Below are positions 5,637 to 11,931 of a stretch of DNA of 12,372 bases, one piece after another. A program made the translations under genes and the position numbers. The notes beneath the pieces are model-generated. The model was not told where the DNA came from. It saw only the letters and a program-made list of their open reading frames with translations, and made no database searches. Origin of the DNA: Acidobacteriaceae bacterium (GTDB lineage: Bacteria; Acidobacteriota; Terriglobia; Terriglobales; Acidobacteriaceae); assembly GCA_030044455.1 (NCBI GenBank), contig JASHVU010000579.1, forward strand, positions 1 through 12,372, read 5' to 3'. Numbering within the stretch: position 1 is the stretch's first letter; every line of letters begins with the position of its first letter.

Positions 5637-5855
5637 ATGGGCGATCTACTTCAACCAACTCACCTGATTATCATTGGCATCCTGCTGCTGGTCCTTTTTG
5701 GCGCAAAGCGGCTACCGGAACTCGGCAAGGGACTGGGTGAGGGACTGAAGGGCTTTAAGGACGGCCTCAAGGGTCCCCAGGACCCGCCGGCGCCGCCGCC
5801 CGTTCAGCAGAATACTTCGGCCCCGACGAGCTCGGCTCCGATCGAGCCCAAGTAG
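5637..5855 (+). CDS. tatA: Sec-independent protein translocase subunit TatA/E
   Basis: Subunit of the twin-arginine translocase, which moves folded proteins across the inner membrane; TatA oligomers form the conducting assembly recruited by TatBC. The 72-residue protein has the diagnostic layout: a short polar N-terminus, one transmembrane helix (about residues 8-20), the Phe21-Gly22 hinge, and a basic amphipathic helix (AKRLPELGKGLGEGLKGFKDGL). A Pro/Ser/Thr-rich tail ends the protein. The polar residue near the start is His9 within THL rather than the more usual Glu of TatA. The ribosome site is strong (GGAGGG, 6-nt spacing). tatC and tatB are not adjacent, so this is an orphan tatA locus. 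A terminator follows 81 bp downstream. Confidence 0.95.
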   Translation: MGDLLQPTHLIIIGILLLVLFGAKRLPELGKGLGEGLKGFKDGLKGPQDPPAPPPVQQNTSAPTSSAPIEPK

Positions 5856-11509: not shown

Positions 11510-11585
11510 TGGAGCACCGGGAGGGGATTGAACCCTCGTATACAGGTTTTGCAGACCTGCGCGTTAGCCACTTCGCCACCGGTGC
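11510..11585 (-). tRNA. tRNA-Cys (anticodon GCA)
   Basis: Reading the minus strand from 11585: acceptor GCACCGG pairs with CCGGTGC (11520-11514), discriminator T at 11513 as expected for tRNA-Cys, and an encoded CCA at 11512-11510. The D arm contains GGCGAAGTGGCTAACGC. The anticodon stem is CAGGT/ACCTG with loop CTGCAAA, anticodon GCA (Cys). The T arm contains GAGGG-TTCAATC-CCTC. All four arms close without gaps, so the gene looks functional. A terminator-like hairpin follows on its strand. Confidence 0.97.
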
Positions 11586-11595
11586 TTGTATAGCA

Positions 11596-11722
11596 GGGAC
11601 TGAGGAATGAGGTACCAGCTTTATTGGAGTCTGTCCGCAGCATTGATTCAGCATCGAATTTTCTTAGTCCCTCGGTCCCAGCTTTCTTGTTCCCTCGTTC
11701 CCATTTTCCCTTGTTCCCTGTC
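11596..11722. repeat. Purine/pyrimidine-biased repeats next to tRNA-Cys
   Basis: Plus strand 11596-11612 is purine-rich (GGGACTGAGGAATGAGG). From 11667 to 11722 it becomes pyrimidine-rich with recurring (T)TCCC units such as TTGTTCCCTCGTTCCC, so the two parts form a loose inverted repeat around the GGGACyGAGG unit. No gene here. Confidence 0.45.
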
Positions 11723-11724
11723 AT

Positions 11725-11896
11725 TAAAAAACCCACCGCGCCATCGAGCGGGTGGGCTCATGCTTCCTGATCGTTGCTCTGGAAGCTTATCCGAGCTCGT
11801 ACCCCCGCGAATCACTGCTCTGACAGCAGCACAGACAAATCGCGGAGTGGAAATAGCTCGTCATCGCATTCTGTTGCTGCGCTCACCCACAGCAAT
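11725..11896 (-). ncRNA. Candidate structured small RNA with its own promoter and terminator
   Basis: On the minus strand a TTGACA promoter (11903-11931) predicts a transcript start near 11896, and a hairpin plus U6 ends it near 11725, giving about 172 nt. The sequence between is rich in perfect stems (plus coordinates): TTGCTG/CAGCAA (11890-11895, 11874-11879); CGAGCT/AGCTCG (11855-11860, 11792-11797) enclosing CTCCGCGA/TCGCGGGG (11840-11847, 11803-11810) and CTGCT/AGCAG (11825-11829, 11815-11819), a long rod; GCTTCC/GGAAGC (11781-11786, 11762-11767); then the terminator. No convincing protein gene is present, only a 25-codon frame without a ribosome site. Size and rod shape would suit 6S RNA, but I cannot find its closing stem and do not recognise a family. 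Confidence 0.55.
11726..11756 (-). terminator. Intrinsic terminator of the candidate small RNA
   Basis: On the minus strand CCCACCCGC (11756-11748), loop TCGATGGC, GCGGTGGG (11739-11732, one bulge), then TTTTTT (11731-11726). The plus strand has no U-run after the hairpin, so the signal is directional. Confidence 0.82.
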
Positions 11897-11902
11897 ATTT
11901 GT

Positions 11903-11931
11903 AGACTATTAATTAGCCGGGGCGGTGTCAA
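11903..11931 (-). promoter_or_regulatory. Promoter with perfect TTGACA -35 driving the candidate small RNA
   Basis: Minus strand: TTGACA (11931-11926), 17-bp spacer, TAGTCT (11908-11903). The -35 matches consensus and spacing is ideal; the -10 matches TATAAT at three of six positions (first, second, last). It lies 26 bp from the divergent phzF start. Confidence 0.6.

What the first reader, a model, noticed from the sequence alone, without database searches (positions are those of the whole stretch)
11725..11931. Orphan structured small RNA between tRNA-Cys and phzF
A perfect TTGACA with 17-bp spacing and a directional hairpin-U6 terminator bracket about 170 nt that fold into three strong hairpins, one a long nested rod (11855 to 11792). 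There is no convincing protein gene. The complete promoter-to-terminator unit on the strand opposite phzF is hard to explain as a leader. It may be 6S RNA, whose size it fits, or an undescribed Acidobacteriota RNA.
Basis: partly seen in the sequence, partly recalled or inferred. Interest (0 to 1): 0.75.

Follow-up and report, generated by a model that had tools for sequence, protein, structure and literature searches.

The report
Cysteine-sensing switch before a spare tRNA-Cys
What looked like an orphan small RNA appears to be a switch in front of a second cysteine tRNA gene: a tiny cysteine-rich peptide is translated as a test, and if the ribosome stalls for lack of charged cysteine tRNA, the RNA refolds and the spare tRNA gene is transcribed.

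Summary
The promoter-to-terminator unit is real, but neither orphan nor 6S, and it holds a protein gene. Minus strand 11864-11787 encodes MTSYFHSAICLCCCQSSDSRGYELG*, a poly-Cys leader peptide. Relatives in 16 genera share the anatomy: promoter, short Cys-rich ORF (87 leaders, 5.9 Cys on average), hairpin over the Cys codons, terminator, then usually tRNA-Cys, directly or after a peroxiredoxin gene. Other copies precede sulfate uptake, PAPS reductase, sulfite/nitrite reductase-family and cysteine synthesis genes. Helices 1:2 and 2:3 pair better natively than when swapped (0 of 5000 permutations). Seven of 24 terminator-to-tRNA gaps are 38 nt or less, and none of the 24 has a promoter match of 9/12 or better. 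Best reading: a ribosome-mediated, cysteine-codon transcription attenuator. Unexpectedly, the controlled gene is a second tRNA-Cys(GCA), 72% identical to the housekeeping tRNA-Cys, which sits beside tRNA-Gly without such a leader (0 of 40 loci). Ten searches of an open-access paper library listed no leader-peptide attenuator of a tRNA gene. Everything is computational; no expression was measured.

The parts
11926..11931 (-). -35 box TTGACA
   Evidence: Sequence; TTGAC-N17..19-TANNNT upstream of 82 of 87 homologous leaders, 0.29 expected
11903..11908 (-). -10 box TAGTCT (3/6 to the E. coli consensus, but TAGTCT-like in many relatives)
11787..11864 (-). Leader peptide ORF MTSYFHSAICLCCCQSSDSRGYELG* (ATG 11864-11862, TAA 11789-11787)
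   Evidence: Cys-rich ORFs in 87 homologous leaders (shuffle control)
11823..11837 (-). Cys codon cluster C-L-C-C-C (codons 10-14): proposed ribosome stalling site
   Evidence: translation; CC present in 82 of 87 leaders
11840..11860 (-). Region 1: 5' arms of the rod (11860-11855 and 11847-11840), before the Cys codons
   Evidence: fold; region 1:2 pairing native vs swapped, 0 of 5000 permutations
11792..11810 (-). Region 2: pairs with region 1 (UCGCGGGG 11810-11803, AGCUCG 11797-11792) or with region 3 (GCGGGGG 11808-11802, GCUCG 11796-11792)
11762..11786 (-). Hairpin directly after the stop codon, kept inside the antiterminator fold
   Evidence: hairpins of other sequence by eye in some relatives
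11747..11759 (-). Region 3: terminator 5' arm (GAGCCCACCCGCU)
11726..11742 (-). Region 4: terminator 3' arm and T6 run
11586..11724 (-). 139-nt gap to the tRNA, best promoter-like match 7 of 12
11510..11585 (-). Controlled gene: second tRNA-Cys(GCA) ('Cys2'), acceptor stem GCACCGG, encoded CCA
   Evidence: ARAGORN; Rfam tRNA; Cys1/Cys2 comparison

Best explanation
It is a ribosome-mediated transcription attenuator whose sensor is a poly-Cys leader peptide and whose output here is a second, non-housekeeping tRNA-Cys gene. RNA polymerase starts at the 11903-11931 promoter (minus) and transcribes the leader ORF. If Cys-tRNA-Cys is plentiful, the ribosome passes the CLCCC cluster and reaches the stop codon, region 2 is covered or paired with region 1, and region 3 pairs with region 4: transcription ends at the T6 run. 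If charged tRNA-Cys is scarce, the ribosome stalls on the Cys codons and covers region 1, so region 2 can pair with region 3 before region 4 is made. The terminator then fails and the polymerase reads into tRNA-Cys2. This closes a loop: shortage of charged tRNA-Cys induces a spare tRNA-Cys, as part of a wider cysteine/sulfur regulon. Shown by sequence: promoter, ORF, alternative helices and their covariation, gene order, two tRNA-Cys types. Inferred: transcription, translation, stalling, read-through, and the benefit of the spare tRNA.
For: Cys-rich ORFs: 18 of 18 aligned leaders, collected by DNA similarity and terminator, and 46 of 47 examined covariance-model hits of the genus (the other is cut by a contig end); at least 3 Cys with CC in 82 of 87 leaders vs 4.2 expected. 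Downstream of those 47: tRNA-Cys within 270 nt in 25 (one tRNA cut by a contig end), peroxiredoxin then tRNA-Cys in 4, other genes in 18. In other genera all 18 leaders precede tRNA-Cys, 14 of them via peroxiredoxin; of 29 loci, 17 do. Sulfur targets: sulfate ABC transporter, CysM-like/JAB/ThiS, NIR_SIR reductase, PAPS reductase. Native 2:3 and 1:2 duplexes beat swaps, 0 of 5000 each, also with one mean per genus (16). Ribosome at the first Cys codon: at least 4 pairs of 2:3 in 87 of 87; full RNA: 3:4 in 83 of 87; 11.0 pairs vs 4.4 in shuffles. No promoter match of 9/12 or better in 24 gaps, seven of them 38 nt or less, one 7 nt. Full signature: 18 of 28 Cys2 loci, 0 of 40 Cys1, 0 of 28 other tRNAs of one genome.
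Against: No transcript, peptide or read-through was measured. Codon-position test on codons 2-8 shows no synonymous bias (0.349/0.384/0.382). For the window alone 12.5% of shuffles reach its 2:3 pair count; only 40 of 87 leaders are individually at or below 5%. In 41 of 87 the free nascent RNA already folds 2:3, and 1:2 forms in 66 of 87 only. 5 of 87 lack the promoter pattern; sites of 8/12 exist in some gaps. 6 of 28 Cys2 loci show neither leader nor, in the 1.0-1.5 kb at hand, an upstream peroxiredoxin. A strain-variant contig reads Arg for the first Cys codon (CCC kept). The 87 leaders were chosen by requiring a short ORF with 2 or more Cys, a loose rule (32 of 87 expected from shuffles), and the model's letters include the Cys codons. 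Peroxiredoxin, TIM-barrel and receptor targets are not obvious cysteine genes.
Confidence: 0.85

Rival explanations
1. Free-standing small RNA (or small Cys-rich protein) that acts in trans; the terminator is the constitutive end of its gene and tRNA-Cys2 has its own weak promoter.
For: The terminator is strong, so a short RNA should accumulate; an attenuator's leader peptide can have a trans role (peTrpL of Sinorhizobium, start of the abstract of PMC7298713 in the listing). The window's gap is 139 nt, long enough for a promoter.
Against: Gaps of 7, 21, 24 and 32 nt in relatives leave little or no room for a promoter, and none of 24 gaps has a match of 9/12 or better; several different sulfur and cysteine genes follow the same leader; alternative helices covary.
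Confidence: 0.08
2. The same leader device senses something other than cysteine supply, for example oxidative damage to cysteine, CysRS or tRNA-Cys, with peroxiredoxin as a main output.
For: Peroxiredoxin is a frequent first gene, and in three loci it is followed by tRNA-Sec.
Against: Sulfate uptake, PAPS reductase and cysteine synthase-like targets point to cysteine supply.
Confidence: 0.2
3. Translation-independent cis element: a riboswitch or T-box-like RNA that binds cysteine or tRNA-Cys.
For: Conserved RNA structure with a terminator upstream of related genes.
Against: No Rfam match; conservation concentrates on the Cys codons, regions 1-2 and the terminator; Cys-rich ORF in 46 of 47 genus copies.
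Confidence: 0.04
4. 6S RNA.
For: Length only.
Against: No RF00013 match even at E<=10; the 5' and 3' ends do not pair; ORF and terminator explain the conservation.
Confidence: 0.01

Closest known systems
Ribosome-mediated (leader-peptide) transcription attenuators such as trp, his, pheST (recalled; Actinobacterial and Firmicute cases in passages of PMC1262725 and PMC2965389)
   Same: Leader ORF rich in the regulating codon, regions 1-4 with exclusive 1:2, 2:3 and 3:4 helices, intrinsic terminator
   Different: The controlled gene is a tRNA gene; [quoted passage not shown] an extra hairpin between regions 2 and 3 in the window
uORFC-8-2 motif upstream of cysS in Rhodobacterales (passage of PMC8632094)
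   Same: Cys-codon uORF plus intrinsic terminator, proposed to respond to inadequate charged tRNA-Cys
   Different: Controls the synthetase, two tandem Cys codons, other phylum; here up to eight Cys codons in a row (L108), and the output is tRNA-Cys, peroxiredoxin or sulfur genes
Poly-Cys leaderless sORFs of mycobacteria (Canestrari 2020, not held; cited in passages of PMC9094748; candidate leaders in passages of PMC1262725)
   Same: Poly-Cys leader ORFs before cysteine/sulfur operons; 18 of 82 leaders here have the -10 box only 3-13 nt from the start codon, so may also be leaderless
   Different: PMC1262725 reports no conserved terminator hairpins in mycobacteria; here there is a conserved intrinsic terminator with an antiterminator
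selC* tRNA-Cys (passages of PMC7609411)
   Same: An additional tRNA-Cys isoacceptor
   Different: Cys2 here is drawn by ARAGORN as a canonical cloverleaf with anticodon GCA; one CysRS over the cut-off in each of 14 genomes

Membership tests
Ribosome-mediated transcription attenuator | Promoter and short leader ORF with clustered regulatory codons | tested here: met
Ribosome-mediated transcription attenuator | Intrinsic terminator between leader ORF and regulated gene on the same strand | tested here: met
Ribosome-mediated transcription attenuator | Mutually exclusive 1:2 and 2:3 helices supported by covariation | tested here: met
   (0 of 5000 permutations, both helices, also by genus); the window alone is not significant
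Ribosome-mediated transcription attenuator | Regulated gene has no other promoter | tested here: inconclusive
   No site of 9/12 or better in 24 gaps; sigma-70 consensus scan only
Ribosome-mediated transcription attenuator | Read-through rises when the cognate charged tRNA is scarce, dependent on leader translation | not testable with these tools
   needs a reporter or RNA-seq
6S RNA (RF00013) | Match to the covariance model / long rod with central bubble and pairing ends | tested here: not met
T-box leader | T-box covariance model match | tested here: not met
   no T-box hit at E<=10
uORFC-8-2 motif | Upstream of cysS in Rhodobacterales | tested here: not met
   Other phylum and other downstream genes

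The most novel reading that the evidence does not exclude
Many Acidobacteriaceae carry a dedicated, starvation-inducible second tRNA-Cys. A poly-Cys leader peptide measures charged tRNA-Cys and, on shortage, switches on this paralogous tRNA-Cys, with peroxiredoxin and sulfur-assimilation genes under sister switches. The housekeeping tRNA-Cys in the tRNA-Gly pair stays outside the circuit. The spare tRNA, with an altered acceptor stem, may be charged or used differently from the housekeeping one.
Probability: 0.6. Interest if true: 0.88.

Novelty: new variant of a known kind. Interest (0 to 1): 0.78.

Why it matters
Leader-peptide attenuators are known for biosynthetic operons and aminoacyl-tRNA synthetases; my paper searches listed none on a tRNA gene. 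Here the sensed molecule and the product are the same kind of molecule, so the circuit would be a direct feedback loop on tRNA supply. It also means that at least ten genera of one family keep two tRNA-Cys species, one in an ordinary tRNA pair and one behind a switch, which makes the question why bacteria keep unequal isoacceptor genes testable. And it gives Acidobacteriota, abundant soil bacteria with few annotated attenuators, a cysteine regulon that can be read from sequence.

Tried and rejected
6S, T-box and other Rfam families: no match (two chance eukaryotic hits far below cut-off). Orphan sRNA: set aside after relatives showed ORF and tRNA-Cys linkage. A second copy in the own genome (G000:C56) is a strain-variant contig of the same locus beside phzF, ending inside the leader. 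The idea that the genome's only tRNA-Cys is behind the switch was tested and rejected: a housekeeping tRNA-Cys exists. A second CysRS for Cys2 was not found: one match over the cut-off in each of 14 genomes. Synonymous-bias evidence for the peptide: negative. A loose Cys-ORF scan had a high background (17 of 39 Cys1 loci, 7 of 43 non-Cys tRNA rows; 32 of 87 expected in shuffles) and was replaced by the full signature and by the rule of 3 Cys with CC. Model R2 over the phylum (91 of 297 genomes) gives many weak, partly terminator-only hits; I do not use that count as a distribution.

Rows dropped before counts; of 30 fetched loci 18 hold the whole unit, L012 is cut, 11 are short chance matches (no unit by the pattern); of 49 rows 47 were examined (not G000:C56, the variant, nor G007:C176, not fetched); of 57 matches the 47 leader matches were used; 10 are reverse-strand, secondary or terminator-only; all hits were looked at; 4 of the 58 genomes (G065, G205, G212, G255) hold only a Thr-type leader or none. 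Leader set of 87: L012 left out (cut), L089 and L094 as repeats of L067 and L069, and of 29 loci L105 (near-copy of L104), L107, L111, L123, L126 (no Cys-rich ORF) and L127 (no ORF): 46+18+23. Start codons in that set were chosen by a script; in L010 it took an inner ATG, not the GTG start.

Full report
What was claimed. The pieces are there: TTGACA, 17 nt, TAGTCT on the minus strand; a hairpin and T6; a fold of -80.5 kcal/mol, z -3.4 against shuffles. phzF is confirmed by Pfam on the other strand, tRNA-Cys by ARAGORN and Rfam. No Rfam family matches the unit in a meaningful way, even at E<=10.

What it is. A DNA search of 99 related genomes gave 30 loci to read. Eighteen hold the whole unit, one is cut by a contig end, and eleven are short chance matches. 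All eighteen have a short Cys-rich ORF, and fifteen of them a tRNA-Cys in the fetched stretch. The window's ORF, 11864-11787 minus, reads MTSYFHSAICLCCCQSSDSRGYELG*. Relatives read MAYFFTPAMCMCCCQGCAARACSLG* and the like, with whole-codon length changes in the Cys run. A covariance model of these eighteen has no reading frame, though its letters include the Cys codons. It hit 42 of 80 genomes of the genus; 58 of 200 of the order, of which on reading 54, in 16 genera, have a Cys leader; and 28 of 299 of the class, one outside the family. These samples overlap. Of 47 genus hits examined, 46 have the Cys-rich ORF and one is cut. At least 3 Cys including CC in one short ORF: 82 of 87 leaders, 4.2 expected from dinucleotide shuffles. 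Fifteen named contigs with the exact terminator pattern belong to Acidobacteriales, Acidobacteriaceae and Terracidiphilus MAGs.

What lies downstream. In the 47: tRNA-Cys within 270 nt in 25 (in L008 the tRNA is cut by the contig end); a peroxiredoxin gene and then tRNA-Cys in 4; peroxiredoxin without tRNA-Cys in the fetched stretch in 7; a TIM-barrel/oxidoreductase pair in 7; an outer-membrane receptor in 3; a sulfate ABC transporter in 1. Pfam or NCBIfam was run on one or two examples of each kind; the others were named by eye from their sequence. In other genera, 18 of 18 leaders precede tRNA-Cys, 14 of them via peroxiredoxin; of 29 further loci, 17 precede tRNA-Cys. More poly-Cys leaders precede NIR_SIR-family reductases (sulfite or nitrite; no NCBIfam cut-off was reached), PAPS reductase in a different family of the phylum, a tetrapyrrole methylase, TauE and a PF03601 transporter (some by eye). 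Peroxiredoxin, the receptors and the TIM-barrel pair are not obviously cysteine genes; most of the rest fit sulfur or cysteine supply. One TIM-barrel locus keeps a tRNA-Cys remnant between leader and gene (score 60, best of 200 shuffles 25); the six others show none that clearly beats shuffles (L029: 5 of 200 shuffles reach it).

Why a leader and not an sRNA. The promoter pattern lies upstream of 82 of 87 leaders, 0.29 expected. In 24 leader-tRNA pairs the gap from terminator to tRNA is 7 to 270 nt; the best promoter-like sites reach 8 of 12, none 9, and seven gaps are 38 nt or less. Starting instead from tRNA genes, the full signature promoter-Cys ORF-terminator precedes 18 of 28 loci of this tRNA type, 0 of 40 of the housekeeping type, and 0 of 28 other tRNAs of one relative. 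Of the ten without it, two have the leader in front of an intervening peroxiredoxin gene (L136, L140), two carry a Cys ORF that fails the strict pattern (L146, L157), and six show nothing, nor an upstream peroxiredoxin in 1.0-1.5 kb.

How it likely works. Region 1 is just before the Cys codons, region 2 just after, regions 3 and 4 are the terminator arms. Region 2 can pair with 1 or with 3. Native duplexes are stronger than swapped ones: 2:3 -16.5 vs -15.2, 1:2 -20.2 vs -18.2 kcal/mol, 0 of 5000 permutations each; with one mean per genus (16) -18.0 vs -15.3 and -20.0 vs -17.0, again 0 of 5000. Region borders were set by script and some include flanking bases. The sequences differ while pairing is kept: GCGGG:CCCGC in the window's genus, TGGGTG:CACCCA in genus g31, TCTGGCG:CGCCAGA before an NIR_SIR reductase (L113) (read by eye). 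With a ribosome at the first Cys codon the exposed RNA forms at least 4 pairs of 2:3 in 87 of 87 leaders (85 of 87 at the last Cys); the full RNA forms the terminator in 83 of 87; free nascent RNA forms 1:2 in 66 of 87 but also 2:3 in 41 of 87. Shuffling the upstream part lowers 2:3 pairs from 11.0 to 4.4; 40 of 87 leaders are individually at or below 5%, the window is not (12.5%). The window's pairs are listed. This is the layout of a ribosome-mediated attenuator that senses charged tRNA-Cys. Codons 2-8 of the peptide show no synonymous bias, as one may expect if only stalling matters; this is a missing support, not a proof.

The surprise. A relative estimated 100% complete (G045, 60 contigs) has two tRNA-Cys(GCA) genes among 42 tRNAs: one paired with tRNA-Gly, one behind the leader. 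A full-length match to the first type is in 61 of 79 genomes of the genus, including the window's own (75 of 75 identical); the tool's tally of 66 includes three partial matches and two genomes whose only match is the second type. It sits beside tRNA-Gly in the window's genome and nine other genera of the family. All 63 leader-linked tRNA-Cys examined have the second type of acceptor stem (GCACCGG, GCACCGA, GCGCCGG, GCATCGG or GCACCAG); one of them, L119, is otherwise only 76% identical to the window's. All 30 housekeeping ones, which were collected by similarity, have GGCGCGG, 29 with tRNA-Gly in the stretch; the window's copy is 72% identical to them. All 93 end in U73-CCA and are called tRNA-Cys. 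From memory, E. coli CysRS also reads acceptor pairs 2:71 and 3:70, which differ here; passages of PMC7609411 name only U73 and GCA. Each of 14 genomes has one cysS over the cut-off. So the switch controls a spare tRNA-Cys, not the only supply. Why is inferred: restoring Cys-tRNA capacity, or a special role, with peroxiredoxin often beside it.

What is known. Cys-codon attenuators exist: uORFC-8-2 before cysS (PMC8632094, passages), poly-Cys leaders in mycobacteria (PMC1262725 and PMC9094748, passages; Canestrari 2020 not held). [quoted passage not shown] Judged by the titles and abstract openings listed, none of ten searches showed a leader-peptide attenuator of a tRNA gene. Several lists were cut (for example 15 of 196 rows), and the library lacks most subscription papers.

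Verdict. A new variant of a known kind: classical attenuation with an unusual output, widespread in a bacterial family. No expression data were available.

Noticed in passing
L121, L214, L217 (other genera of the family): Poly-Cys leader, peroxiredoxin, then a tRNA-Sec(UCA) gene of 98-99 nt where relatives have tRNA-Cys2; the peroxiredoxin keeps Cys in FTPVCTTE.
   Followed up: partly
L107, L111, L123, L126: Aspartokinase or homoserine kinase genes preceded by short frames with runs of Thr codons (read by eye) and a terminator: a likely threonine attenuator in Acidobacteriota.
   Followed up: no
L206, L207: A Trp-Trp leader before anthranilate synthase and a Leu-rich leader before 2-isopropylmalate synthase, each with a terminator, in other Acidobacteriota families.
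   Followed up: partly
L019:1572-1651: Degenerate tRNA-Cys between the leader and a TIM-barrel gene, suggesting the switch outlived its tRNA and changed targets.
   Followed up: partly
L031 (G000:C56): Strain-variant contig of the same locus, 96% identical over 169 nt, with the first Cys codon of the cluster reading Arg; the contig ends inside the leader, before the terminator.
   Followed up: yes
window 11660-11720: Near-repeats of TTCCC-rich words in the gap between terminator and tRNA; some relatives have other repeats (such as ACTGACAACTGA) in the same place.
   Followed up: no
L134, L151-L154, L156: tRNA-Cys2-type genes without a detectable leader; genomes G008, G009 and G010 have three or four matches to the tRNA-Cys2 query.
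   Followed up: partly
window 5637-5855: TatA/E-type twin-arginine translocase subunit (Pfam PF02416).
   Followed up: no
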